This document shows positions 31,389-55,918 of a stretch of 64,000 nucleotides of DNA, piece after piece. Source of the stretch: Thermoleophilaceae bacterium (GTDB lineage Bacteria > Actinomycetota > Thermoleophilia > Solirubrobacterales > JACPNS01). Under the pieces are notes generated by a model that was given only the letters and a program-made list of their open reading frames with translations, was not told the origin of the DNA and searched no databases. Each line of letters starts with the position of its first letter. The first letter of the stretch is position 1. The stretch covers positions 1-64,000 of the forward strand of contig JAEMSX010000010.1 in the NCBI GenBank assembly GCA_016462645.1. Reading direction: 5' to 3'. Both the position numbers and the translations under genes were made by a program.

Positions 31389-33647
31389 TCAACCTCCGAT
31401 TCTGCCGGCGTTGTATGAGGAACGGAATCGGCGCAGCCGCAGCGCGTTCGCGACCACTGAGATGCTGGAGAACGCCATCGCCAGCCCGGCAATCAGCGGG
31501 TTGAGCAGACCGGCGGCCGCGAGCGGCAGCGCGGCGAGGTTGTAGCCGAATGCCCACGCGAGGTTCTGTTTGATCGTCCGCAGGGTGGCGCGCGAGAGCC
31601 TGATCGCATCGCCTGCCGCGCGCAGGTCGCCCGAGACGAGCGTCAGGTCACTGGCTTCGATTGCGACGTCGGTTCCGGTGCCGATCGCAAGCCCCAGATC
31701 CGCCTGTGCGAGCGCCGGTGCGTCATTGACTCCGTCACCGACCATCGCCACGACACGTCCCTCCGACTGCAGGCGGGCGATCACGCTCGCCTTGTCGGCC
31801 GGCAGCACCTGGGCGATGACTTCGTCGATTCCGACTTCAGCGGCGACTGCGTTCGCGGTCCCGGTGTTGTCTCCGGTCAGCAGGACCGGACGCAACCCGA
31901 GCTTCTTCAGGTTGGCGACGGCCTCGGCGCTGCTCGGCTTGACGGTGTCTGCGACAACGAGCATGCCGCGGACTGCTCCGTCCCACGCGATCAGGACCGC
32001 CGTGCGCCCAGAGCTCTCGGCTCGGCGCTTGGCCGCTTCGATCTCCGCGGGCATCGCAAGACCCCAGTCCTTGAGCAGTCGCTCGCCGCCAATCTGCGCG
32101 CCGCGTCCGAGGGCGATGCCCTCGACACCGAGTCCGGCGCGGCTGACGAACGATTCGACGGCAGGCAGCGGACCAGTCTCAGCTTCAGCGGCGACTGCGA
32201 TCGCCCTCGCGATCGGGTGTTCGGACGCGTCTTCGAGCGCGCCGGCGATCCGTAGGAGCTCCGTTCGATCTGTCGCCTCCGCCGTCACGACGTCGGTCAG
32301 GCTCATCTTCCCGGAGGTCACGGTGCCCGTCTTGTCGAGCACGATCGTGTCGACCTTGCGAGTTGACTCGAGGATCTCGGGACCTTTGATCAGCAGCCCG
32401 AGCTGCGCGCCGCGTCCAGTGCCGACGAGCAGCGCAGTCGGAGTGGCGAGTCCCAGGGCGCATGGGCAGGCGATGATCAGTACCGACACGGCGGCGGTGA
32501 AGGCGAACGCAGTGCTTTCGCCCGAACCGATCCAGAAACCCAGCGTCGCGACGGCGAGCACGATCACCACGGGCACGAAGATCCCGGACACCCGGTCAGC
32601 AAGCCGCTGCACCGGTGCCTTCCCGGTTTGCGCGTCGCTGACCAGCTGCGCGATCTGCGCAAGCGCGGTGTCGGCTCCGACTCGCGTCGCGCGCACGACC
32701 AGGCGGCCACCGGCGTTGACGGATGCGCCGACGACCTCGTCGCCCGGCTGCTTCTCGACCGGTACGGATTCGCCGGTCAGCAGCGACTGGTCAACTGCTC
32801 CAGAGCCGTCCTCGACGACGCCGTCCGTGGCGACCTTCTCGCCCGGCCGGACTATGAAGCGGTCGCCGGCCTTGAGCTGTTCGATCGGGATCCGGGTTTC
32901 GCTGCCGGATTCGTCGAGCACCGCGACGTCCTTGGCACCGAGTTCGAGCAGCGCGGTCAATGCGGCACCCGCGCGGCGCTTCGCCTTCGACTCGAAGTAG
33001 CGACCGGCGAGCACGAAGACCGTGACCGCGGCAGCGACCTCGAGGTAGATCTCGTCGCTTCCGGACGCCGAGAAGCTCAGCTTCATGCGCATGTCCGGCA
33101 TTCCGGCATCGCCGATGAAGAGCGCGTAGAGCGACCAGAGGTAGGCCGATATGACTCCGACGCTCACCAGGGTGTCCATCGTTGCGGTCGCGTGCTTGAA
33201 GTTGGTCCAGGCCGCCTGGTGGAACGGCAGGGCGCCCCAGATCACGATTGGCGACGCCAGCGTGAGCGACAGCCACTGCCAGTTGTCGAACTGCAGCGGT
33301 TCGATCATCGCGATCGCGAGCACCGGGAGCATCAGCGCCAGCGATATCCGCAGCCTCGTGCGGAGCGCGTCCGTCTCGTCCGGCGGCTCGGGGGATGATT
33401 CGTCTCCCGCCGTGCTCGCCAGCGACGTTCGATATCCCGCGGCCTCGACGGCGTCGACGAGTTCTCCCGCCGCTACTGCCTGCGGATCAAAGGCGACAGT
33501 CGCGGTCTCGGTCGCATAGTTCACGGTGGCGCTGACGCCATCGAGCTTGTTGAGCTTGCGCTCGATGCGGTTCGCGCACGACGCACAGGTCATTCCGCTG
33601 ATCGGCAGATCAACCCGCTCCTGCTGAGAAGTCGTCTGGTCGGACAT
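31389..33647 (-). CDS. copA: Copper-translocating P1B-type ATPase
   Basis: 752 residues. Exports Cu(I) from the cytoplasm using ATP. One N-terminal heavy-metal domain with GMTCASC (Cys-21, Cys-24); eight expected membrane helices; the transport motif CPC at 394-396 in [17 protein letters not shown]; phosphorylated Asp-438 in DKTGTVTSG; the P-domain [20 protein letters not shown]; and the SEHPIA-type nucleotide motif ([12 protein letters not shown]). All key residues are intact. GGAGGTG precedes the start. It is the third gene of an operon with CopZ-like, exported, and DUF4396 proteins. Confidence 0.96.
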
Positions 33648-33649
33648 GA

Positions 33650-34519
33650 CTACTTCACCTCCTCGGTGAAGGCGGCGGTCTGCACACGGCCGCTGTCCTT
33701 GAACTGCAGGAACAGCCTGTATGCGCCCGCGGTGGGGAACGTCGCCTCGAACATGATCTCGCCGGGCGCGCCGGCGTGTTCCTCGGGGTGGACGTGGAGG
33801 AACGCCAGGTCGCCGTCACGCAGGGCGACGAGGTGGCCGTCCGCACCCAGGTACTTCTCGACTTCGACGGGACGACCGTCGCGAGAGACTTCAAAGCGGA
33901 GGCTCGTTGCCTTGCCGGGACGACTGTCGGAATCACTGAGGCGCACGCGGTAGCCATCATCAGTGGCGGCGGCTGCCGGCGCCGGCAGCGGCTTCAGCTT
34001 CGACTCGCCGTCGACGCGCAGATCGGAGGCGAGCGTCACCGGCTCGCCTTCGCGGAGGAAGTCGGCGAAGAGGCGGTAGGAGCCCGCCTGCGGGAGCGAG
34101 ACCGCGGCGCTCCAGGTGCCGTCCGCTTCCATCTGCGGGTGAAGGTGCTGGAAGCCGGTCAGATCGCGTCGAACCACGATCAGATGCATGGGCTTCGTGT
34201 GTGTCGGTGTGAAGTCGCGGACCGTCGCGCCGCTCGTGTCGACGATGCGAAATCTGAGTTGCTCGCGTGCACCGCGCATGAGCTCCGGTGTCTCGACGAT
34301 CAGCCGCACGCCGTGGTCCTCGACGGCGAGGCCGCGCACCGCGTGAGCGCCGGCCGCGCCGCCGCTCATGCTCATCGCGCCTTCGCCCTCGTCTGCGTGT
34401 TCCGATTCGGCGGCCCGCGTGGGCTTCTCCGGATCGAGCGCGCGGCCCACGCCGATCGACGCCACGAACACCAGCAGCAGGAGGCCGGCAAATGCTGCGA
34501 GCTTCAACGCGGCGCTCAT
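33650..34519 (-). CDS. Exported His/Met-rich protein of the copper operon
   Basis: 289 residues with an N-terminal membrane anchor or signal ([19 protein letters not shown]). A His/Met-rich stretch ([16 protein letters not shown]) precedes two similar beta-sandwich-like repeats, each with a conserved His cluster: [25 protein letters not shown] (about 107-130) and [23 protein letters not shown] (about 225-250). The repeats recall cupredoxin-like copper-binding modules. It probably buffers or hands off copper outside the membrane. It overlaps copZ by four bases and ends 2 bases before copA. Confidence 0.88.
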
Positions 34520-34749
34520 GACTCGACCACCGTGTATCCGGCGAGTTCGACGGCCGCGCGCACAGCGTCGTCGCTCACGCCGGAGCTGCCCGTGGTGACG
34601 GTGACCTCACCGCTGCTCAGATCGACCTCAACAGCTTCGACGCCCGGAACCTCGGTGACTTCTTCTGTGACCGATGCGACGCAGTGCGAGCAGGTCATTC
34701 CTGTGACCACGTAGGTCCGAGATGGCTTGGTTTCAGTTGAGTGGTTCAT
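34516..34749 (-). CDS. copZ: CopZ-like heavy-metal-associated chaperone
   Basis: 77 residues forming one HMA domain: TYVVTGMTCSHCVASVTEEV with the Cu(I)-binding CxxC, then VEVDLSSGEVTVT and the C-terminal [12 protein letters not shown]. Cytoplasmic copper chaperone delivering Cu(I) to CopA. ATG at 34749 with AGGA ahead is chosen over a start 48 bases upstream. It is the first gene of the copper operon and lies directly downstream of two CsoR-type boxes. Confidence 0.93.
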   Translation of the reverse strand: MNHSTETKPSRTYVVTGMTCSHCVASVTEEVTEVPGVEAVEVDLSSGEVTVTTGSSGVSDDAVRAAVELAGYTVVES

Positions 34750-34767
34750 TTCCTGTACTCCTTCAAT

Positions 34768-34822
34768 ATACGGGGTGGGGGTATCCGGTGAGGCCAATAT
34801 AACAGATACCCTAGGGGGGTAT
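34768..34822 (-). promoter_or_regulatory. Two CsoR-type operators around a -10 box of the copper operon
   Basis: Both sites fit ATAC-N9-GTAT. The upstream one, with flanks GATACCCTAGGGGGGTATC (34805-34823), is nearly the classic CsoR palindrome; the other lies at 34768-34784. Between them on the minus strand is TATATT (34796-34801), so the strong site falls between -35 and -10 and the second in the early leader. Apo-CsoR bound here would block transcription until Cu(I) is present. No csoR gene is in the window. Confidence 0.8.
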
Positions 34823-34889
34823 CGGGAAACTTCAAAAAAGTTTTCGGCGGTGATTCATGGTTCCAGCATGGGGCGTAGCCTGTACAGAC

Positions 34890-35672
34890 GTGTGGTGGAA
34901 TCGCGAACTCGCGAATTGCCGCCCGCGACTTGGCGCATCGCTGGCGATCGCCGTTGCCGCGTTGAGCGGCTGCGGTGGCAACGACGCGACCGCGCCTGCG
35001 CCGCCCGCGTCGTTGCCCACTGCGCAGCGCTCGGGATACTCCGGCTGCACTCCTCCCGGTGCGTTTCTGCGTCATGGCTCGCGCCGCGAACAGAAGGTCG
35101 CGCTCACGTTCGATGACACGCCCAGCGCTACGACGCTGGCGCTTGCGAAGGTCCTCAGCGATCACGATGCGAAGGCGACATTCTTCGTGTTCGCCAATCA
35201 GATCGGTGACCAGGCCGGATCGCTGCGACGCCTGATCGTCGACGGCTCAGAACTCGGGAGCCACTCGTACAGCCACCTGAATATGACTGAACCTGGCGTC
35301 GATGTCGGGCAGGAGGTGCGGAAGGCGAACTCCGCGATTGAAGCTGCCACGGGATTCACGCCTTGTCTCTTCAGAGCGCCATACGGCAAGCTCGACCCGG
35401 TGCTCGTGCGGCAGCTCGTGCGACTGGATATGACGATGATCGGTTGGGATGTGGACCCTGCGGACTGGGAACACCCGGGCGCCGAAGTGATCGCCTCACG
35501 CGTCCTCAAGGACGTGCGACCGGGGTCGATCGTGGTGCTGCACGACAGCCCAGAGACGCAGGGCCAGACGATCAGGGCGCTGCCCGCGATTCTCGATGGT
35601 CTCGCGACAAAACGCCTCGAAACAGTGACCGTGACGGAGCTGCTCGGCGGCAGAATGCTCAGACAGGGGTAA
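34890..35672 (+). CDS. Polysaccharide deacetylase lipoprotein (NodB/CE4)
   Basis: 260 residues from a GTG start preceded by TAGCCT (8 nt); an ATG at 34857 is an alternative. Lipoprotein signal ASLAIAVAALSGCGG places it on the outside of the membrane. NodB motifs are all present: motif 1 ALTFDDTPS (general base Asp and metal Asp; Thr where Gly is usual), motif 2 GSHSYSH (metal His pair), motif 3 RAPYGK, motif 4 GWDVDPADWEHPG, motif 5 VLHDS. It should remove N-acetyl groups from a GlcNAc polymer. The next two genes encode a GGDEF protein and a PgaC-like synthase, which suggests joint exopolysaccharide work. Confidence 0.9.
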   Translation: MWWNRELANCRPRLGASLAIAVAALSGCGGNDATAPAPPASLPTAQRSGYSGCTPPGAFLRHGSRREQKVALTFDDTPSATTLALAKVLSDHDAKATFFVFANQIGDQAGSLRRLIVDGSELGSHSYSHLNMTEPGVDVGQEVRKANSAIEAATGFTPCLFRAPYGKLDPVLVRQLVRLDMTMIGWDVDPADWEHPGAEVIASRVLKDVRPGSIVVLHDSPETQGQTIRALPAILDGLATKRLETVTVTELLGGRMLRQG

Positions 35673-35756
35673 ACGGTGTTTCGTTTCTGCCGATAAATCC
35701 GTATTGTTGCCAACGAGGGGCCAGTCACGAACTTCGCATTCAGACAAAGCACGACC

Positions 35757-38036
35757 GTGATACCGCAGGGCGATGTGAGCGGATCCAGCACGTCAGAGGA
35801 TGGCGGTCGGCTCCAGGCTCCAGCGTGGCTGCTGGCACTGGCCGCCCTGGCTGCGGCCAGCCTCGCTTCGATGGCCCTGATCCTGGCTTTTCAAGCCCAG
35901 GGCGAGCGCGCGACGGTCGCAAACCTGCTTGACGACGCTGCTTTGCTGTTCGCGTTGGCCGCCGCGACGCACGCGTCCCTGCACACCTTGTCCACCACAC
36001 GGACGATGTGGCGGCTGCTTGCCGTGGGTCTCCTCTCATGGGTGATCGGTGAGGCGATCTTCGACGTGCGCACTCAGATCCTTGACCGCAGCATGGACGA
36101 GTCGATCGCCGACGTCTTCTACGTGCTGTTCTATCCATTCGCCCTGGCGGCGCTGTGGGTGCGCGACCGTGAGGCCCGCAGCGGCCGCCTTGACGTCCGC
36201 ATGCTCGACGCACTGATCGTGGCCGGGGCGGCAGCGCTGGTCGCCTACGACCTCGTGTACGACCAGAACTTCGACAGCGCGCCGACGTCGGCCGGTGACA
36301 TCGCGCGCGCCGCATACCCCGTCTTTGACGGTCTGCTGCTCTGGGTGATTGCGTACCAGGCCTATAACCCTGCGATCGTCTGGGATCCGACACGCTGGCT
36401 GCTCGCCGCGGGGACTGTCGGGCTCCTGGTCGCTGACATCTTCTGGAATGTGCTCGGTGCGCTGGAGTACGCAATCGCGGTCTCCGCCGCGATGCTCTGC
36501 ATCGGCGCCGCGGCAATTCTGACGCCCGAGACGACCAGTCCGCGTGACCCCACGCGCCGACTGCCGTCTCAGCTGGTTCCGGCGATCGTCCTCTCGGCCG
36601 CGATCGCCGCGATCGCGGCAACGCTGGTCGTGAATGTCTACAGCGACGCGCCCGTCCTGATCGTCGGAGCGATGGTCGTCATGGGGATCGTGCTCGTGCG
36701 GCTCCTCGCGACCCTGGCGCTGAATGACCGACTGCTCGTCGAGAGCGAGGAGCGGGCGGTCAGCGATTCGCTCACGGGCCTGCGAAACCGCCAGTACTTC
36801 GTGGAACGACTTGATGTCGAAGTGCAGCGTGCAGACCGGGATGGAACGCCGGTTGCGCTGCTGATGATCGACATCGACGACTTCAAACTGATCAACGACC
36901 TGGCCGGTCATCGCGCCGGCGATCGCGCCCTGGTCTCGATCGCAGAGGCCATGAATGCTTCAAGTCGCGCCACCGACATCGTCTGCCGTCTCGGCGGCGA
37001 CGAACTGGCGATCATCGCGCCGGCGACGAGCGCGTCTGAAGCGATGGGCCTGGCCGAACGGCTCCGCGCGCGCGTCCATGCGATCGTCATCTCCGAGCTC
37101 GCGGACCAGGGCGGGGTGTCAGTCTCGATCGGCTGCTGCGTCTATCCGGACATCTCCGACTCGTCGACCGAATTGATCGAGCGCGCCGACGAGACGCTCT
37201 ACGCCGTGAAGCAGAGCGGCCGGGATCGCGCGGCGATCTACGACCATGCCGCAACGCATCCGCACGACGATGCGTGGCAGCTGGCGCGAACAAAGGCCGA
37301 ACTTGCCGCGCGCAACGCGGATTTCCGCGCGGTGTTCGCACACGCCCATGAGGCGATGGTCATTACCGACGAAGACGGGACCGTGTTGATGGCCAACGCC
37401 GCCAGCGTGCGCATGTTCGGTGCCGCGCGTGAGCAGATGATCGGCCGGAGCGTCATGGAATTCGTCAGGCCGGAGCACAAGTCCGAGCTCGCCGACCTGA
37501 TCGCGAACACCCAGACCGCAGGCGAGGCGGAAGGGAAACTGCATCTCGTCGTTCCCGGCGACGAGCATCTGCTGGTCGCGTTCTCGACGTCGCGATTCGC
37601 ACCCGGTCGCTACCTGACGATCGTGCGCGACATCTCAGAGTCCGAAGAGGCCGCGGAGCGTTTGGCGCGGAGCGAAGCGCACTTTCGTGCAGTTTTCGAG
37701 AATTCGATCGATCCGATGTTCGTCACCGACGACGCAGGCATTGTCCGCGATGCAAATCGTGCGGCAGCGCTGCTTGTCGAAAGGTCTCTGCCTGAGTTGA
37801 TCGGTCAGCCCGTCGAGCAACTGATGGAGGCGGGCTCAAACATCGACGTGACCGCGCTGAGAGCGGATCTGCGTTCCGTCCAGGAACAGCAGGGGAGCCT
37901 CACGACGCGCGACAAGAGCGGCAAAGTGAGGACGTTCGAATACACCGCAGTTGCGGACTTCGTGCCCGGCCGCCATCTCTCGATCGTGCGCGACGTCTCC
38001 GATCGCGCGTCTCTGCCCGAGAAACCCGAATCCTGA
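35757..38036 (+). CDS. Membrane GGDEF protein with two C-terminal PAS domains
   Basis: 759 residues. About eight hydrophobic helices (30-330) form a membrane module, followed by a GGDEF domain (about 340-505): VSDSLTGLRNRQYFVERL, MIDIDDFKLINDLAGHRAGD, and the active loop GGDEL at 413-417 (last residue Leu, not Phe). An RATD five residues before it matches the RxxD inhibitory site. Two PAS domains follow (about 530-645 and 650-755: FRAVFAHAHEAMVITDEDGT; FRAVFENSIDPMFVTDDAG). PAS domains after the cyclase is an unusual order. It probably makes c-di-GMP. Its TGA overlaps the ATG of the glycosyltransferase, so the two are translationally coupled. Confidence 0.92.
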   Translation: MIPQGDVSGSSTSEDGGRLQAPAWLLALAALAAASLASMALILAFQAQGERATVANLLDDAALLFALAAATHASLHTLSTTRTMWRLLAVGLLSWVIGEAIFDVRTQILDRSMDESIADVFYVLFYPFALAALWVRDREARSGRLDVRMLDALIVAGAAALVAYDLVYDQNFDSAPTSAGDIARAAYPVFDGLLLWVIAYQAYNPAIVWDPTRWLLAAGTVGLLVADIFWNVLGALEYAIAVSAAMLCIGAAAILTPETTSPRDPTRRLPSQLVPAIVLSAAIAAIAATLVVNVYSDAPVLIVGAMVVMGIVLVRLLATLALNDRLLVESEERAVSDSLTGLRNRQYFVERLDVEVQRADRDGTPVALLMIDIDDFKLINDLAGHRAGDRALVSIAEAMNASSRATDIVCRLGGDELAIIAPATSASEAMGLAERLRARVHAIVISELADQGGVSVSIGCCVYPDISDSSTELIERADETLYAVKQSGRDRAAIYDHAATHPHDDAWQLARTKAELAARNADFRAVFAHAHEAMVITDEDGTVLMANAASVRMFGAAREQMIGRSVMEFVRPEHKSELADLIANTQTAGEAEGKLHLVVPGDEHLLVAFSTSRFAPGRYLTIVRDISESEEAAERLARSEAHFRAVFENSIDPMFVTDDAGIVRDANRAAALLVERSLPELIGQPVEQLMEAGSNIDVTALRADLRSVQEQQGSLTTRDKSGKVRTFEYTAVADFVPGRHLSIVRDVSDRASLPEKPES

Positions 38037-39454
38037 TGGGCGGGAAACCGCAACGCGCGCCTGAGGTCGTCCCCAAAGTCATCGATTTGGAGGTGCCTCA
38101 TCCGTCGCACCGCGGTTGGGACGAAGGGCGCTTGCCCCGGGGTTCGATCCTCAACTTCGTCTACCTGCGGGTGAAGACACGGTTCTCGATCAGCATCGTG
38201 ATTGCGCTCGGTTGGGCCGGGCTCTCGACGTATCTTGCGACGCGCTGGATCAACGACTTGGCGGAGGTGTTCACGATGCCGGTTGCGATCGCAATCGTCA
38301 CGGGGATAGCGATCGTTCCCGGGTATCTCAGTGCCCAGCTCCTGATTGCAATTTTCTTCGACCGCCCTCGCTCGATTGAGAACGTCGAACTGAGCTATCC
38401 GTCGATGACCCTGCTGATCGCCGCGTTCAACGAGGAGGAGTCGATCGAGGCGACGCTCGACGGCGCTCGCAAGCAGGACTACCCGGGACCGTTGGAAATC
38501 CGCGTGATCGATGACGGCTCGACCGACTCCACGCGCGAGATCGTGCGCGCGATCGAAGCGGTGGACCCGCGCGTGCAGCTGATGGTCGCTGAGCACGGCG
38601 GCAAGTCCAGCGCACTCAATCACGGGCTCTTCGAATCGCGATCGCGCTACGTCGCAACCGTCGACGCTGACACCCTGCTGATGCCGCAGTCTTTGCGCAG
38701 GGCGACAGCCCGCCTGCTCGTGTCTCCGGCCGACACGGTGGCGGTTGCCGGCGATGTGCTCGTGCGAAACGCGCGCAAGAACCTGATGACACGGATGCAG
38801 GATTGGGACTACGTGCTCGGGATCGCATCGGTCAAGCGGCAGCAGGGTCTGGTTCGTGGAACGCTGGTGGCGCAGGGTGCGTTCAGTGTCTACGACGCGC
38901 GAAAACTGCGGCGCATCGGTGGATGGCCGGACATGATCGGTGAGGACATCGTGCTCACGTGGTCGCTCTTCGTGCACGGTGGGCGGGTCGCCTATGAACC
39001 GACCGCTGTCGCCTACACCGATGCGCCCGAGCGGCTCCGGATGTTCATCCGCCAGCGCAAGCGCTGGGCGCGCGGGATGATCGAAGGTCTGCGCGCGCAC
39101 GGCGGAACGTTGATCGCCAGGCACCGGGTCTACTCGTACGCGGTGGGCGTGAACTGGGGGTTCCCATATCTCGACTTCGTCTTCACGTTCTTCTGGATCC
39201 CGGGGCTCGTGCTCGCCTTGACCGGGAACTTCATGATCGTCGGCCCGATGACGCTGGCAGTGATCCCGCTGAACGCACTCGTGACCGCGATGATGTACCG
39301 CCGGCAGCGCACGGAAGTCGAACGCGTCGGGCTTTCCCTGCGGCGGAACTTCCTCGGCTTTGTCGCCTACTTCTTTCTGTACCAGCTGATGATGTCGCCG
39401 ATCTCGACCTGGGGCTACTTCGAGGAGCTCTTCAGGCGCGACCGCGCGTGGTGA
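38036..39454 (+). CDS. Processive family 2 glycosyltransferase, PgaC/IcaA-like
   Basis: 472 residues. Two N-terminal helices (about 48-115), a cytoplasmic GT-A domain, and three or four C-terminal helices. Catalytic elements: LLIAAFNEEESIEATLDGA, IDDGSTDST, TVDADTL (DxD), GEDIVLTW (base Asp) and QRKRWARG (QxxRW), the set seen in hyaluronan, cellulose and poly-GlcNAc synthases. Likely product is a beta-linked N-acetylglucosamine polymer pushed through the membrane. Start overlaps the GGDEF gene stop (TGATG). With the deacetylase and GGDEF protein it forms a compact exopolysaccharide locus. No PilZ domain is seen. Confidence 0.92.
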   Translation: MGGKPQRAPEVVPKVIDLEVPHPSHRGWDEGRLPRGSILNFVYLRVKTRFSISIVIALGWAGLSTYLATRWINDLAEVFTMPVAIAIVTGIAIVPGYLSAQLLIAIFFDRPRSIENVELSYPSMTLLIAAFNEEESIEATLDGARKQDYPGPLEIRVIDDGSTDSTREIVRAIEAVDPRVQLMVAEHGGKSSALNHGLFESRSRYVATVDADTLLMPQSLRRATARLLVSPADTVAVAGDVLVRNARKNLMTRMQDWDYVLGIASVKRQQGLVRGTLVAQGAFSVYDARKLRRIGGWPDMIGEDIVLTWSLFVHGGRVAYEPTAVAYTDAPERLRMFIRQRKRWARGMIEGLRAHGGTLIARHRVYSYAVGVNWGFPYLDFVFTFFWIPGLVLALTGNFMIVGPMTLAVIPLNALVTAMMYRRQRTEVERVGLSLRRNFLGFVAYFFLYQLMMSPISTWGYFEELFRRDRAW

Positions 39455-42034: not shown

Positions 42035-42721
42035 CTATTCGGCGAGATTCACGCACACCGCGAAGGAGACGAGTTTCCAATTCGTGGTGAGCGGGGTGAT
42101 CTCGTTCGCGTACGCGATCCAGCTTGAAGTGTTGAAGGGGTAGCCCAGATCCATCGGCTGGCTCACCGTCAGGGCAACCGGGGGAATCGATGACACAGCC
42201 GTCGCGGTCGCGCCTCCACCGATGACCTTCTTCGTGCCCGGGCAGTCGGCAATGACCCCTTTGAGATCGCTGGCATCGTTCACGCTTTCCGCGGTGACGG
42301 TCTCGCGTCCGCTGATGCCGACGGGGCCGGTCGCGCCGTTGGCGCCGGTCGCGCCCTGCGCGCCCGGGCTGCCTGTCGCACCGGTCGCGCCCGCGTCACC
42401 GCGTGAACCGGCGATGCCCGGTTGACCGGTCTCTCCCTTTGGTCCCTGCGCGCCGACGAGTCCCTCGGGAAAGACCGACGCCGGGAACCTGGCCCGCTTG
42501 TCCAGTGCCAGCAGCCGGCCGGCTCGAGGCCTCTTGGTCGCATGCAGGCCGTCGACCCTGTCGGCGTTGATGCCGCGAGATTGGGTCGCGGCTGAGCGGT
42601 CGACCGCGCTGACCGATCCATTTCCACTCAGCGCGATCATCGTCGCGATGAGCGAAAGCCCGAGCGCGACGAGTGGAATGACCCGCGTGAAAATGCGATC
42701 GAAGAAGTCTGACCGGTGCAC
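42035..42721 (-). CDS. Collagen-like membrane-anchored protein
   Basis: 228 residues. N-terminal transmembrane segment (IPLVALGLSLIATMIALSG), a linker, then about 16 uninterrupted Gly-X-Y triplets (residues 89-140, starting GAQGPKGETGQPG), and a C-terminal beta-rich domain with KKVIGGGATATAV and one Cys pair candidate (ADCPGTKK, FAVCVNLAE). Bacterial collagen-like proteins trimerise and stick out from the cell surface. GTG start with TAGCTT ending 6 nt before it and no SD. Divergent from the stress cassette. Confidence 0.88.
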   Translation of the reverse strand: MHRSDFFDRIFTRVIPLVALGLSLIATMIALSGNGSVSAVDRSAATQSRGINADRVDGLHATKRPRAGRLLALDKRARFPASVFPEGLVGAQGPKGETGQPGIAGSRGDAGATGATGSPGAQGATGANGATGPVGISGRETVTAESVNDASDLKGVIADCPGTKKVIGGGATATAVSSIPPVALTVSQPMDLGYPFNTSSWIAYANEITPLTTNWKLVSFAVCVNLAE

Positions 42722-42854: not shown

Positions 42855-44180
42855 TTGGAGTACGCGGATCGCACCGAGGCAGGTCAACGCCTCGGTGCAC
42901 GAATGAAGGCCTTTGCCGAAGAGCGGCCGGTCGTCGTCGGCATGCCGCGCGGGGGTGTGCCGGTGGCGATCGAAGTCGCCAAGGCGCTGGGCGCGCCATT
43001 CGACATCGCCGTCGTGCGCAAGCTCGGAGCTCCGGGCCAGAGTGAATTCGCGATCGGCGCGATCGCCGAAGGCGGGATCATGATCGTCCAGCCGGCCGCC
43101 CGGGAAATGTCGGGGGCCAGCGACGAGCAGTTGGCGAGGATCGTGCGGAAGGAGCGGGCCGAGCTCGAGCGGCGCGCCAATGTCTATCGCGCCGAGTGCC
43201 CCATGCGCGACCTGAACGGCCGCACCGTCATCCTCGTGGACGACGGGCTCGCCACGGGGTCGACGGCGATCGCAGCAGCGCGCAGCCTGCGCGCGCGCGG
43301 CGCAGAAAAGGTGATTCTCGCGGTGCCGGTGTGTCCGCCCGAAAGCCTCGAACAACCGCTCGACGATTCAATCGAGCGGGTCGTCTGCCCGTTCACGCCG
43401 AGTCCGTTCTTCGGGGTCGGACTGTGGTTTCGAGACTTCGAGCAGGTCGGCGACGACGCGGTGATCGGGATGCTGCGCGAGGCCGTCGATCTGGGAGGAG
43501 AAGGCCCGGTCGAGGTGCCCGTGAGCGCGGAGCAGGTTGAGATTCGCGAAGGTGCCGGCGTTCGGCTGCTCGGCGACCTGACGATCCCTGAGCACGCGCG
43601 CGGACTGATCGTGTTCGCGCACGGGAGCGGCAGCAGCCGCACCAGCCCCCGCAACCAGATGGTCGCGCGAACGTTGAACCACTCGGGCTTTGCGACCCTG
43701 CTTTTCGATCTGCTCGACCCGGTCGAAGCGGACGATCCACGCAACACCTTTGACATCCCGCTGCTCGGCAGACGGCTGGTCGTGGCCACCGAGCAGATGC
43801 TTCAGCGCTCAGACCTTGCTCAGTTGCCGGTCGGGCTGTTCGGCGCAAGTACGGGTGCGGCAGCCGCGTTGTGGGCGTCCGCAGAACTTGAAGGACGAGT
43901 CTCAGCGGTTGTTTCGCGAGGCGGCCGACCTGACCTGGCGATGGAGCGGCTGGAGAAGGTCACGGCTCCGACGCTTCTCATCGTCGGCGGTGAGGATCAC
44001 ACCGTGATCGGGCTCAATCGTGCCGCAGCGCACCGCATGTTCTGCCCGACGGAGATCCTGATTGTCGAAGGCGCGGGACATCTCTTTGAGCAACCCGGTC
44101 AGCTTGAACGGGTGGCCGGCGAAGCAGCCGGTTGGTTCGGAATCCACATGCGAGAGCGGGTGACCCATGAGCTTGGCTGA
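42855..44180 (+). CDS. Phosphoribosyltransferase / alpha-beta hydrolase fusion
   Basis: 441 residues in two domains. Residues 1 to about 215 are a PRTase with VVVGMPRGGVPVAIEVAKAL and the PRPP loop VILVDDGLATGSTA. Residues 225-435 are a dienelactone-hydrolase-like domain with VFAHGSGSSRTSPRN, nucleophile elbow GLFGASTGAAA, Asp near GGEDHTV and His in EGAGHLFE. The start is TTG at 42855, fixed by a perfect GGAGGTGA four bases upstream. It overlaps the erythromycin-esterase-like gene by 14 bases. Such fusions occur in stress-linked clusters of several phyla; substrates unknown. Confidence 0.92.
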   Translation: MEYADRTEAGQRLGARMKAFAEERPVVVGMPRGGVPVAIEVAKALGAPFDIAVVRKLGAPGQSEFAIGAIAEGGIMIVQPAAREMSGASDEQLARIVRKERAELERRANVYRAECPMRDLNGRTVILVDDGLATGSTAIAAARSLRARGAEKVILAVPVCPPESLEQPLDDSIERVVCPFTPSPFFGVGLWFRDFEQVGDDAVIGMLREAVDLGGEGPVEVPVSAEQVEIREGAGVRLLGDLTIPEHARGLIVFAHGSGSSRTSPRNQMVARTLNHSGFATLLFDLLDPVEADDPRNTFDIPLLGRRLVVATEQMLQRSDLAQLPVGLFGASTGAAAALWASAELEGRVSAVVSRGGRPDLAMERLEKVTAPTLLIVGGEDHTVIGLNRAAAHRMFCPTEILIVEGAGHLFEQPGQLERVAGEAAGWFGIHMRERVTHELG

Positions 44181-45504
44181 CACGCGACTGCAGCGAGAGC
44201 TGTTGCGACTGGCCCGGCCGCTGCGCGGCCGCGAGGATCTGGCGCCCCTGGTCGAGTCGGTCGCCGATTCCGAGGTCGTGATGCTCGGCGAGGCGACACA
44301 CGGAACCAAGGAGTTCTACGAATTGCGCGCCGAGATCACCCGCAGACTCGTGGCCGATCACGGCTTCGATTTCGTCGCGGTCGAAGGTGACTGGCCCGAT
44401 TCGGCACTGATCGATCGATTCGTGCGGGATGCTCCCGACCCGGATGAGCGCGACGCCCAGAACGCGCGTGATGTGCTCGCCCGGCTCGATCGCTGGCCGA
44501 CCTGGATGTGGGCGAACGAGGAGGTCGCTGTACTCGTCGACTGGATGCGTCATTTCAACGACCTTCACGCGCCCGATCGCCAGGTGCGCTTCCACGGTCT
44601 CGACATCTACTCGCTCTACAAGTCGATCAGCGCCGTCATCGCGTACCTCGAGGATGTCGACGCCCCGATCGCCGACGAAGTGCGCGAACGCTACGGCTGT
44701 TTCGAGCTGCACAGTCCCGATGAGATCGCCTACGCACGCTCGACACTGCACTTCCCGCGCGGCTGCGCAACGCAGGCGGTCCAGAACCTTCGCGCGCTGC
44801 TCGAGGTGGACGTGCCCATCGGTCGGCCGGACGGAATCGAGCTCTTCAGCGCGCGTCAGAACGCGCGGGTGGTGCGCGACGCAGACCGCTATTACCGGAC
44901 GATGCTGCACGGCAATGTCGATTCCTGGAACATTCGCGACCGACACATGATGGAGACGCTCGAGTTGCTGCTCGCCGGCGGGGCCGCCGGTCGAAAGCGA
45001 GCGGTCGTCTGGGCGCACAACACTCACATCGGCGACTACCGCGCCACAGACATGGCGTCCCACGGTTTCTTGAATCTCGGCGGTCTGGCCAGGGAGCGTC
45101 TCGGCCGTTCTGCGGTGTCCCTTGTCGGATTCGGGACGCACAGCGGCCGGGTGGTCGCCTCGCATGCGTGGGACGGCCCGACGGAGAGCGTCGACGTGCC
45201 TCCTGCGCGGCCCGGGAGCTACGAGTTCGCAATGCACGAGATCGCGGACAAACTTGGAAGCAGCGACATGTACCTGGTCTTCGACGAGCAGTCACGTCAT
45301 GGGCCGCTCGCCGCCGTCGCCGACAACCGCGCGATCGGGGTGGTCTACGACCCGCGACATGAGTCGCGCGGAAACTACGTTCCGACTGCGCTGGCCGATC
45401 GCTATGACGCGTTCGTCTTCGTCGATCGCAGCGCGGCTCTGCGTCCGCTGGTCACGTCCGCGCACCGCCACGAGCTTCCCGAGACCTATCCGAGCGGGGT
45501 CTGA
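44167..45504 (+). CDS. Erythromycin-esterase-like protein
   Basis: 445 residues. EreA/B-family motifs: VVMLGEATHGTKEFYELRAE (active-site Glu and His), VAVEGDWPD, RFHGLDIYSLYKS, and VWAHNTHIGD near 285. The family hydrolyses the macrolide lactone ring, but most members outside resistance elements act on other unknown substrates. It overlaps the PRTase-hydrolase gene by 14 bases and is followed by a terminator-like hairpin and hsp20, so a stress cassette is more likely than drug resistance. Cytoplasmic. Confidence 0.9.
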   Translation: MSLADTRLQRELLRLARPLRGREDLAPLVESVADSEVVMLGEATHGTKEFYELRAEITRRLVADHGFDFVAVEGDWPDSALIDRFVRDAPDPDERDAQNARDVLARLDRWPTWMWANEEVAVLVDWMRHFNDLHAPDRQVRFHGLDIYSLYKSISAVIAYLEDVDAPIADEVRERYGCFELHSPDEIAYARSTLHFPRGCATQAVQNLRALLEVDVPIGRPDGIELFSARQNARVVRDADRYYRTMLHGNVDSWNIRDRHMMETLELLLAGGAAGRKRAVVWAHNTHIGDYRATDMASHGFLNLGGLARERLGRSAVSLVGFGTHSGRVVASHAWDGPTESVDVPPARPGSYEFAMHEIADKLGSSDMYLVFDEQSRHGPLAAVADNRAIGVVYDPRHESRGNYVPTALADRYDAFVFVDRSAALRPLVTSAHRHELPETYPSGV

Positions 45505-53658: not shown

Positions 53659-53805
53659 ATGTCAATGAGCATCGCCACCCAACCGGCACCAAGTCTGACG
53701 AGTGACGCGCAGGATCTGGATTCGATCCTGCAGCACCTCGAGGCCTCGAAGCGAGCGTCAGTTGCGACAACTCGCTTCGTGAGAGATGCTTCGCCGGCAG
53801 GATAA
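53659..53805 (+). CDS. Possible 48-residue leader ORF before the tandem-GGDEF gene
   Basis: ATG at 53659, stop at 53805, overlapping the next gene by 20 bases. Sequence MSMSIATQPAPSLTSDAQDL then DSILQHLEASKRASVATTRF. No SD and no -10 box. It could couple translation to the GGDEF gene or be chance. Apart from it the 255-base gap holds nothing recognisable. Confidence 0.25.
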   Translation: MSMSIATQPAPSLTSDAQDLDSILQHLEASKRASVATTRFVRDASPAG

Positions 53806-55918
53806 GCAAACGGAAGCTGGCCTGAACCCGCGCTTTCTCTGGACGGTCGCGGCGCTTCTGTGGCTGACGCTCGGCTCGGTGCAATGCGCGTCGTGGGCAT
53901 TTCATCTGACCCCGATCCGTCTGCCGATGGGTACGTTCTTGCTCGGCGGCGTGATGGCGCTGATGCTCGCGGTCACCTGGTTCGTATGCGGGTTGCGGGG
54001 AGTGCCGATCGACCCGTGGTACCACGCGCCCCTGGCCGGTGGATGGCTGATGATCGTGGCCGCCAGCTCGTTGGACCCCAACCAGCACAGCGCCGACGTG
54101 GTCTATCCGATGCTGCCGATGCTGGTTGCGTTGATGATCTTCCCGGCCAACCGCTCGTGGCCGTATGTCATTGCCGGCGTCGCGGGTTCCTGTGGCTTCG
54201 TGATCTTCGGCCAAGACCCGACTCCGCTGCCGCGGTCGATCATCGTCGGCGTTCTTGTGGTCGGTGCCGCCGCCATTCTGTTGGTGGGCCACAGCCAATT
54301 GCACGCGGCGCTCAAGCGCAATCGAAGCCTTTCGGAGACGGATCCGCTCACCGGGCTGCCGAACTCTCGCCGATTGATGACACGCCTGCATGATGAGTTC
54401 GCCCGTGACGCGCGCGGGGAGGACGGCACGTTCGGAGTGCTCGCTCTTGATCTGGACGCCTTCAAGACCGTGAACGACACGCTCGGCCATTCGACCGGTG
54501 ACCGTGTGCTGGTCGAAGTCGCCCGCGCGATCGAGCGCGAGCTCGAGCCCAGCGACATGGCTGTTCGCCGCGGTGGGGACGAGTTCACCGTTGTGGCGCT
54601 CGAGCATGAAGGCCGTCGCCTCTCGTCGTTGCGGGAGCGCATCGCCGAGGCGATCAGCGAGACTCGGAGCCAGCTGTGCCCGTCGATCGAGCCGCGCGCC
54701 AGCGTGGGTCTGGTCATGCACGAGGCCGGTGAGCGGCCGGAAGACCTTCTGCACCGCGCCGATGACGCTCTGCACGAAGCCAAACAAGAGTCACATGTTC
54801 GCCGCGGAAACCCGGAGCGCCAATACGGCCAGGTGTTGGCATTCGTCAGAGCTGATGTTCCCAACGGGGAGGACCGTGAGCTGCTCGGGTCCGAGGCCAA
54901 CGAAACGACGTTGAGCTACGACGAGATGGTCCGCACAGCGTCCTGGCAGATGCTCGCCGCGTGTTACGCGATGATCGCCGCGTGCGTGCCGCTGATCGGG
55001 ATCACAGGTCGCGGCGATTCGCTTTCGCCGGTTGTGATCTCGGGTGTCTGTCTGGCTGCTGCGGCTGGAGCCGCGGCATGTCTCGTCGGCGGCCCGCGGA
55101 CCAACCGCAAGGCCCCTCTGCACGTGGCGATCATCGGTGCGATCGTTCTGGCCGTGGCGCTGGTCAGTGCCTCCGGGGCAGTGCTGAACGCGACCGCCGA
55201 CATTCTGATCATGCCGGCGATGTTGGCCTTCTATGTCGTCGGGCGCCGCGCAGCCCATCTGTACGCGCTGACGGCGCTGGGGCTTTACGGGTACTTCCTC
55301 TCGACGACGTCGTATGACCTCACGGTCATTCGCACAGTGCAGACCGCTGCGGTGGTACTGCTCGTCGGCGCAATCCTGCCGCGCACGCTGAAGCAGACCC
55401 GCGCCGCCTGCGACGAGAGTGAGCGCCTGTCGGGAATTGACGCGCTGACCGGACTCGCCAATGTGCGTCGCATGCACCAGCGTCTGAACGAAGAGCTCGC
55501 GAGGGCGGCGACAGTTGGCGGTCAGGTGACGATCTTCATGATCGACCTCGATGACTTCAAGCTCGTCAATGACCGCTACAGCCATACGGTCGGAGATCGC
55601 ATGCTCGAAGCCGTCGGAGCGAAGATCATGGGAGAGATGCGCGCGTACGACCTGGCGGTTCGGCGCGGCGGGGACGAGTTCCTGATCGTGATGCCGCACG
55701 GCGGCGAGCTCGATGCTGCCGCGTTCGCAGAGCGGATTGCCGAATCGATCGCAGAAGTCCGTTTGAAGATCTGTCCGGACCTCAATCCGCGTGCGAGCGT
55801 CGGATACGCCACCGCTCGACCTGGCGACTCCGCGGCAGAGCTGATCGCCTGCGTCGACCAAAAAGAGAAGTCGGTCAAGCTGGATCACCGCGAGGACTTG
55901 CTGCTCGCTGCCGGCTAG
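53786..55918 (+). CDS. Tandem membrane-GGDEF protein (internal duplication)
   Basis: 710 residues. Two copies of the same layout: about six helices (20-170) plus GGDEF (about 180-345), then about six helices (380-530) plus GGDEF (about 545-705). Active loops GGDEF at 263-267 and 628-632, both intact, with LDLDAFKTVND and IDLDDFKLVND before them. The inhibitory RxxD is present only in the second copy (RAYD); the first has EPSD. Two cyclase active sites in one chain could dimerise within the molecule. Probable diguanylate cyclase; sensed signal unknown. AGAG is the only SD-like sequence. Confidence 0.93.
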   Translation: MLRRQDKQTEAGLNPRFLWTVAALLWLTLGSVQCASWAFHLTPIRLPMGTFLLGGVMALMLAVTWFVCGLRGVPIDPWYHAPLAGGWLMIVAASSLDPNQHSADVVYPMLPMLVALMIFPANRSWPYVIAGVAGSCGFVIFGQDPTPLPRSIIVGVLVVGAAAILLVGHSQLHAALKRNRSLSETDPLTGLPNSRRLMTRLHDEFARDARGEDGTFGVLALDLDAFKTVNDTLGHSTGDRVLVEVARAIERELEPSDMAVRRGGDEFTVVALEHEGRRLSSLRERIAEAISETRSQLCPSIEPRASVGLVMHEAGERPEDLLHRADDALHEAKQESHVRRGNPERQYGQVLAFVRADVPNGEDRELLGSEANETTLSYDEMVRTASWQMLAACYAMIAACVPLIGITGRGDSLSPVVISGVCLAAAAGAAACLVGGPRTNRKAPLHVAIIGAIVLAVALVSASGAVLNATADILIMPAMLAFYVVGRRAAHLYALTALGLYGYFLSTTSYDLTVIRTVQTAAVVLLVGAILPRTLKQTRAACDESERLSGIDALTGLANVRRMHQRLNEELARAATVGGQVTIFMIDLDDFKLVNDRYSHTVGDRMLEAVGAKIMGEMRAYDLAVRRGGDEFLIVMPHGGELDAAAFAERIAESIAEVRLKICPDLNPRASVGYATARPGDSAAELIACVDQKEKSVKLDHREDLLLAAG

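What the first reader, a model, noticed from the sequence alone, without database searches (positions are those of the whole stretch)
34890..39454. Compact c-di-GMP-linked exopolysaccharide locus: deacetylase, GGDEF-PAS-PAS, PgaC-like synthase
A NodB lipoprotein, a membrane GGDEF protein with intact inhibitory site, and a family 2 synthase with DxD and QxxRW follow one another; the GGDEF stop overlaps the synthase start. In poly-GlcNAc systems these three activities (modifying deacetylase, c-di-GMP supply, polymerase) belong together, but usually with PgaA, PgaD or PilZ, none of which is present. This may be a minimal Gram-positive version with local c-di-GMP control.
Basis: partly seen in the sequence, partly recalled or inferred. 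Interest (0 to 1): 0.7.

Follow-up and report, generated by a model that had tools for sequence, protein, structure and literature searches.

The report
c-di-GMP-linked polysaccharide synthase locus
Three neighbouring genes in an uncultured actinobacterium encode a polymer-making enzyme, an enzyme of the signal molecule c-di-GMP and a sugar deacetylase; relatives of the polymer-making enzyme repeatedly sit beside different c-di-GMP enzymes, so it is probably a signal-controlled surface-polysaccharide synthase, a variant of a known kind of biofilm system.

Summary
In detail: a lipobox-bearing NodB deacetylase (34890-35672), a membrane GGDEF-PAS-PAS protein (35757-38036) and a GT2 synthase (38036-39454, one-base TGATG overlap), all with catalytic motifs (the signature is GGDEL, with an intact RxxD I-site). 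The full order recurs only in one congener, and the deacetylase is not found beside other orthologues. The c-di-GMP link is more general: orthologous synthases sit directly beside differently built GGDEF enzymes in three independent actinobacterial lineages and in one Bacillota relative. In genome G040 that neighbour carries the only GGDEF and only EAL domain detected, and no PilZ or MshEN receptor was found. The enrichment exceeds chance (P about 0.0002-0.0015), but most homologues, above all in Bacillota, have no such neighbour. The synthase folds like hyaluronan and cellulose synthases and is PgaC-related, yet fails the PgaC/IcaA equivalog cut-off; PgaD is absent and the deacetylase is PdaB/NodB-like. 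A poly-GlcNAc system is therefore not established. Best reading: a PilZ- and PgaD-free, c-di-GMP-coupled synthase-dependent exopolysaccharide locus, a new variant of a known kind.

The parts
34890..35672 (+). NodB-type (CE4) polysaccharide deacetylase, predicted lipoprotein (lipobox LSGC); alternative ATG start at 34857
   Evidence: Pfam PF01522 E=6e-26; PdaB/NodB/PgdA-like in NCBIfam, all below cut-off; motifs complete; PDB chitin/peptidoglycan deacetylases
35757..38036 (+). Membrane GGDEF-PAS-PAS protein (N-terminal 9-10 predicted helices, GGDEF residues 334-491, PAS around 520-630 and 640-750); GGDEL signature, RATD I-site
   Evidence: Pfam; alignment to PleD; low-confidence model, pLDDT 62
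38036..39454 (+). Processive-type GT2 membrane polysaccharide synthase, 5 predicted TM helices (46-76, 81-108, 366-395, 404-430, 439-465), motifs DD159, DAD210-212, GED302-304, QRKRW340-344
   Evidence: Pfam, NCBIfam TIGR03937 159 bits, AlphaFold2 pLDDT 90.5, Foldseek to HAS and BcsA
38034..38038 (+). TGATG stop/start overlap between GGDEF gene and synthase gene, suggesting translational coupling
   Evidence: Sequence; in congener G001 the same junction is a 4-base overlap
34750..34889 (.). Divergent intergenic region shared with a copper operon; two CsoR-like GC-rich palindromes (about 34767-34786 and 34805-34823). A link to nodB transcription is inference only
   Evidence: Sequence

Best explanation
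A membrane GT2 synthase polymerises and extrudes a polysaccharide (sugar unknown; an N-acetylated aminosugar is the best guess). Its co-translated neighbour, a membrane diguanylate cyclase with PAS sensors and an I-site, supplies or presents c-di-GMP locally and thereby switches the synthase on. In this genus a surface-anchored NodB lipoprotein then deacetylates the emerging chain. Shown: gene order, intact catalytic motifs, synthase fold (predicted), recurrent linkage with varied c-di-GMP enzymes, no PgaD or PilZ found. Inferred: polymer identity, deacetylation of this polymer, c-di-GMP dependence and how c-di-GMP reaches the synthase.
For: Overlapping genes in G000 and G001. GGDEF enzymes of different architecture directly beside orthologous synthases in three independent Actinomycetota lineages and in Aquibacillus, on separate branches of the synthase tree. 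Six of seven loci with a GGDEF hit have it within 2 kb of the synthase, against one between 2 and 10 kb (P=7e-4); Poisson-binomial from genome-wide GGDEF counts P=0.0015 on any strand, 2e-4 on the same strand. In G040 the adjacent PAS-GGDEF-EAL protein carries the only GGDEF and only EAL domain detected, with no PilZ or MshEN. Synthase model matches hyaluronan and cellulose synthases over its length. All synthase-adjacent GGDEF domains aligned (window, two in G001, G034, G040, L072, L132) keep RxxD and the catalytic residues. NodB conserved upstream in G001 at 64%.
Against: Most homologous synthases, including many in the same order and nearly all in Bacillota, lack an adjacent GGDEF gene. G150 keeps an intact synthase although no GGDEF was detected (84% complete assembly). 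The same GGDEF-PAS-PAS family occurs in G003 without the synthase. NodB linkage rests on two congeners that share wider synteny. No c-di-GMP-binding element in the synthase was identified. G000 has 24 GGDEF domains and one MshEN effector, so other targets exist.
Confidence: 0.55

Rival explanations
1. The GGDEF protein is not a cyclase but a c-di-GMP receptor subunit of the synthase, like YdaK of B. subtilis or PelD: c-di-GMP made elsewhere binds its I-site and the protein activates the synthase through the membrane.
For: Signature is GGDEL in all four members of this GGDEF family; I-site intact in the window and G001 members. YdaK (degenerate GGDEF with I-site in an exopolysaccharide operon) is an experimental precedent (PMC7064775), as is PelD (PMC8461298). 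G000 has many other GGDEF domains to supply the signal.
Against: All catalytic and metal-binding residues other than the F-to-L change are present, unlike YdaK and PelD; in G040 and G034 the neighbour has a canonical GGDEF and in G040 it is the only GGDEF domain found, so there it must make any c-di-GMP.
Confidence: 0.17
2. Mere neighbours: the GGDEF protein serves other c-di-GMP outputs (MshEN-type pilus ATPase, an RsiG-type anti-sigma factor) and the synthase is constitutive or regulated otherwise.
For: MshEN present in G000 and G001; RsiG switch reported in class Thermoleophilia (PMC8325347); most homologous synthases have no GGDEF neighbour.
Against: Adjacency is enriched and independent in several lineages; overlapping genes; in G040 and G034 no MshEN or PilZ was found and the neighbour is the sole or near-sole c-di-GMP enzyme. 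RsiG was not tested.
Confidence: 0.2
3. NodB acts on peptidoglycan (PgdA/PdaB-like wall modification) or on environmental chitin, and is in the cluster by accident of position. (Compatible with the best explanation for the other two genes.)
For: Best curated matches are PdaB, NodB and PgdA; absent beside all other synthase orthologues; deacetylase homologues are common in the order in unrelated places.
Against: Kept upstream in G001 at 64% identity although the gene above it differs (copper operon in the window, another gene in G001).
Confidence: 0.35
4. A true Gram-positive poly-beta-1,6-GlcNAc (PNAG/PIA) locus.
For: PgaC_IcaA is the best NCBIfam model for the synthase; 30% identity with E. 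coli PgaC in the core.
Against: Score 159 against a cut-off of 422; C-terminal membrane part does not align; no PgaD; deacetylase not of the PgaB/IcaB type; hyaluronan and cellulose synthases are the nearest solved folds.
Confidence: 0.15

Closest known systems
pgaABCD / icaADBC poly-GlcNAc loci
   Same: GT2 membrane synthase of related sequence, a NodB-fold deacetylase, and (in E. coli K-12) a diguanylate cyclase gene dgcT beside pgaABCD
   Different: No PgaD, deacetylase of another subfamily, synthase below the equivalog cut-off, GGDEF gene overlapping the synthase gene
Bacillus subtilis ydaJKLMN
   Same: Gram-positive exopolysaccharide operon with a membrane GGDEF protein and a putative synthase; local c-di-GMP signalling shown there (PMC7064775)
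   Different: YdaK is a degenerate receptor fed by DgcK; here the GGDEF domain looks catalytic; no further synthase subunit gene in the cluster
Pel (PelD, Gram-positive Pel cluster)
   Same: c-di-GMP control of a polysaccharide machine without PilZ, through a GGDEF-fold membrane protein (PMC8461298)
   Different: PelD is a degenerate GGDEF with a GAF domain; other glycosyltransferase and a multi-gene cluster
Bacterial cellulose synthase BcsA / hyaluronan synthase
   Same: Overall synthase fold and D, DxD, ED, QxxRW motifs
   Different: No PilZ domain, 16-18% identity
Sinorhizobium meliloti BgsA mixed-linkage glucan synthase
   Same: Synthase without PilZ reported to bind c-di-GMP through its C-terminal part (cited in PMC10374906)
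   Different: Different synthase; no C-terminal extension identified here

Membership tests
PNAG synthase (PgaC/IcaA, TIGR03937) | Score above the equivalog cut-off | tested here: not met
   159.4 bits against 422.3; homologues in other phyla 154-193
PNAG synthase (PgaC/IcaA, TIGR03937) | Accessory PgaD subunit | tested here: not met
   PF13994 absent from 8 genomes, found in the E. coli control; IcaD not tested
PNAG synthase (PgaC/IcaA, TIGR03937) | PgaB/IcaB-type deacetylase | tested here: not met
   NCBIfam hits are PdaB, NodB, PgdA and others; no PgaB or IcaB model listed
PNAG synthase (PgaC/IcaA, TIGR03937) | Product is beta-1,6-GlcNAc | not testable with these tools
   Needs biochemistry
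Processive GT2 polysaccharide synthase | D, DxD, ED, QxxRW motifs plus membrane channel helices | tested here: met
   Motifs at 159, 210, 303-304, 340; full-length fold match to HAS and BcsA, TM-score about 0.58-0.64 for the best entries
BcsA-type c-di-GMP-regulated synthase | PilZ domain | tested here: not met
   No PilZ in the protein or the assembly
Diguanylate cyclase | GG(D/E)EF signature and metal-binding residues | tested here: inconclusive
   GGDEL; all other PleD-equivalent residues present; activity not testable here
Diguanylate cyclase | RxxD inhibitory site | tested here: met
   RATD five residues before GGDEL
YdaJKLMN-type operon | Degenerate GGDEF receptor (YdaK) | tested here: not met
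   GGDEF domain otherwise catalytically complete
YdaJKLMN-type operon | YdaL and YdaN components | not tested
   No further gene in the cluster; no genome-wide search made
CE4 polysaccharide deacetylase | Five CE4 motifs | tested here: met
   TFDD, HSYSH, RAPYG, DPADW, LHD

The most novel reading that the evidence does not exclude
The synthase clade is itself a direct c-di-GMP receptor of a new sort, needing neither PilZ nor PgaD, and in organisms such as G040 it is the dedicated output of a one-enzyme c-di-GMP circuit (a single GGDEF-EAL protein encoded next to a single synthase).
Probability: 0.2. Interest if true: 0.75.

Novelty: new variant of a known kind. Interest (0 to 1): 0.45.

Why it matters
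How Gram-positive bacteria, and actinobacteria in particular, connect c-di-GMP to polysaccharide synthesis is poorly known. A synthase clade spread over several phyla that repeatedly has its own c-di-GMP enzyme beside it, but lacks every known receptor module looked for, points to a missing receptor. G040-like genomes, with one GGDEF-EAL protein beside one synthase, would be a very simple test case.

Tried and rejected
A TPR partner in three deltaproteobacterial loci looked PgaA-like, but BLAST of the L082 protein to E. coli PgaA gave nothing, so no PgaA claim is made. AlphaFold of the GGDEF protein was too poor (pLDDT 62) to identify its membrane sensor by fold search. The idea that loss of GGDEF goes with loss of the synthase (G056: no GGDEF and a synthase cut short) is not general, since G150 has no GGDEF found and intact motifs. 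Terminator and promoter scans were at background. No riboswitch of Rfam in the window. No c-di-GMP-contacting motif could be singled out in the synthase; the invariant Arg/Lys (K190, R226, K267, R341, R343) lie in or near the catalytic core.

Full report
Observation. The deacetylase (34890-35672) has all CE4 motifs and a lipobox; the GGDEF protein (35757-38036) has an N-terminal membrane part, a GGDEF domain and two PAS domains; the synthase (38036-39454) carries the D, DxD, ED and QxxRW motifs. The GGDEF stop and synthase start overlap by one base (TGATG); deacetylase and GGDEF gene are 84 bases apart. One correction: the signature is GGDEL, not GGDEF. All four members of this family have it, and the remaining PleD catalytic positions and the RxxD I-site are intact in the window protein. 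A GGDEL domain may be an active cyclase or not; sequence alone does not decide.

Host. The window lies in a 2.65-Mb, 149-contig assembly estimated 82% complete. Its nearest named relative among the fetched records is a groundwater Actinomycetota MAG, followed by Solirubrobacterales MAGs. Absence statements for G000 are limited by that completeness.

Order in relatives. The complete order recurs in the congener G001 (deacetylase 64%, GGDEF 51%, synthase 75% identity), with a second GGDEF copy behind the synthase. The two G001 copies are 69% identical to each other and 50-51% to the window's, so the duplication is most simply specific to G001. G001 also shares flanking genes with the window (a lipase and an endonuclease/phosphatase-family gene), so conservation there is partly plain synteny. 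G003 has the GGDEF protein without the synthase; G002 has the synthase without this GGDEF or NodB beside it. The deacetylase is beside the synthase only in G000 and G001.

The general signal. Orthologous synthases elsewhere sit next to other c-di-GMP enzymes: G034 and G040 have a PAS-GGDEF-EAL protein 3 and 6 bases downstream; G321 (the same locus as L072) has a PAS-GGDEF protein about 40 bases upstream and a response-regulator/histidine-kinase protein downstream; Aquibacillus saliphilus has a 7TMR-DISM-GGDEF protein downstream; G064 has a GGDEF-HD-GYP gene two genes away. On the synthase tree these are separate branches. Over the 80 loci, six of seven loci with a GGDEF domain have it within 2 kb of the synthase, although only 23% of the searched flank lies there (P=7e-4). 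From genome-wide GGDEF counts, three linked actinobacterial lineages are observed against 0.23 expected (P=0.0015; same strand 0.12 expected, P=2e-4). These P values use approximate gene counts (one gene per kb) and a hand-made grouping into lineages, so they are indicative. The set was chosen by synthase similarity, not by neighbour, except that the window itself was picked for this feature; without that lineage two linked lineages remain.

The most telling genomes are G040 and G034. G040 (1.9 Mb, 92% complete) has one GGDEF and one EAL domain in all, both in the protein beside the synthase; G034 has two GGDEF domains and one EAL, the latter again in that neighbour. Neither has a detectable PilZ or MshEN receptor. 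RsiG, a c-di-GMP-binding anti-sigma factor known from Thermoleophilia (PMC8325347), was not tested.

Limits. Most of the family has no c-di-GMP neighbour. In the same order, G002 and the loci L064, L065, L067 and L068 have none; several others are cut by contig ends (G046, G143, L061, L062). In Bacillota the gene is usually alone. G150 has an intact synthase and no GGDEF found. The association is therefore recurrent but optional.

What the synthase is. AlphaFold2 with 66 sequences gives a confident model (pLDDT 90.5, pTM 0.88): two N-terminal helices, a GT-A domain, an interface-helix region and three C-terminal membrane helices. Foldseek's best matches are hyaluronan synthase and cellulose synthase over the whole length. 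By sequence the nearest curated family is PgaC/IcaA, far below its cut-off; E. coli PgaC aligns at 30% over residues 122-379 only. It belongs to a family shared by Actinomycetota, Bacillota, Chloroflexota and Myxococcota, with a strongly conserved TLVAQGAFSxY...GGWPDxIGEDI...RQRxRWARGM core. I found no member with a known product. It is thus a synthase of unknown sugar specificity; an aminosugar is a guess from PgaC/NodC similarity.

Mechanism. Most likely the GGDEF protein, inserted in the same membrane and probably made from the same message, raises c-di-GMP locally (PAS and I-site setting its output) and the synthase responds. How is open: directly, or through the GGDEF protein acting as receptor, as YdaK does for the B. 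subtilis yda system (PMC7064775) or PelD for Pel (PMC8461298). PilZ is excluded as part of the protein and was not found in the assembly; PgaD was not found. NodB may deacetylate the exported chain in this genus; peptidoglycan is an equally possible substrate.

Comparison. A diguanylate cyclase gene next to a synthase locus is not new in itself (E. coli dgcT beside pgaABCD; ydaJKLMN). New here are the synthase family, the lack of known receptor modules, and the repeated pairing with unrelated c-di-GMP enzymes. I file it as a new variant of synthase-dependent, c-di-GMP-linked exopolysaccharide loci, not as a PNAG locus.

Noticed in passing
window 31389-34749, palindromes near 34767-34786 and 34805-34823: Copper operon (HMA chaperone, YtkA-like protein, P-type ATPase) divergent from nodB, with two CsoR-like GC-rich palindromes in the shared 140-base promoter region; nodB transcription could be affected by copper.
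   Followed up: partly
window 53786-55918: Second GGDEF gene in the window, with two GGDEF domains in tandem; many such double-GGDEF frames are listed in this genus (G000-G004).
   Followed up: no
L038 8064-8813 (G056): Synthase reduced to its C-terminal part, joined to what looks like the start of another gene, in a genome without any GGDEF domain found; deletion or assembly join.
   Followed up: partly
L077, L082, L087: In three deltaproteobacterial MAGs the synthase homologue is followed by a TPR protein with a signal-like N-terminus; no similarity to PgaA by BLAST for the one tested.
   Followed up: partly
L124 380-4244: Actinomycetota MAG with sortase, synthase homologue and a TackOD1-domain protein in a row.
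   Followed up: no
window 42855-44180: Fusion of a phosphoribosyltransferase domain with an alpha/beta hydrolase, followed by an erythromycin-esterase-family gene (44167-45504).
   Followed up: no
window 42035-42721: Collagen-like repeat protein with an N-terminal hydrophobic segment.
   Followed up: no
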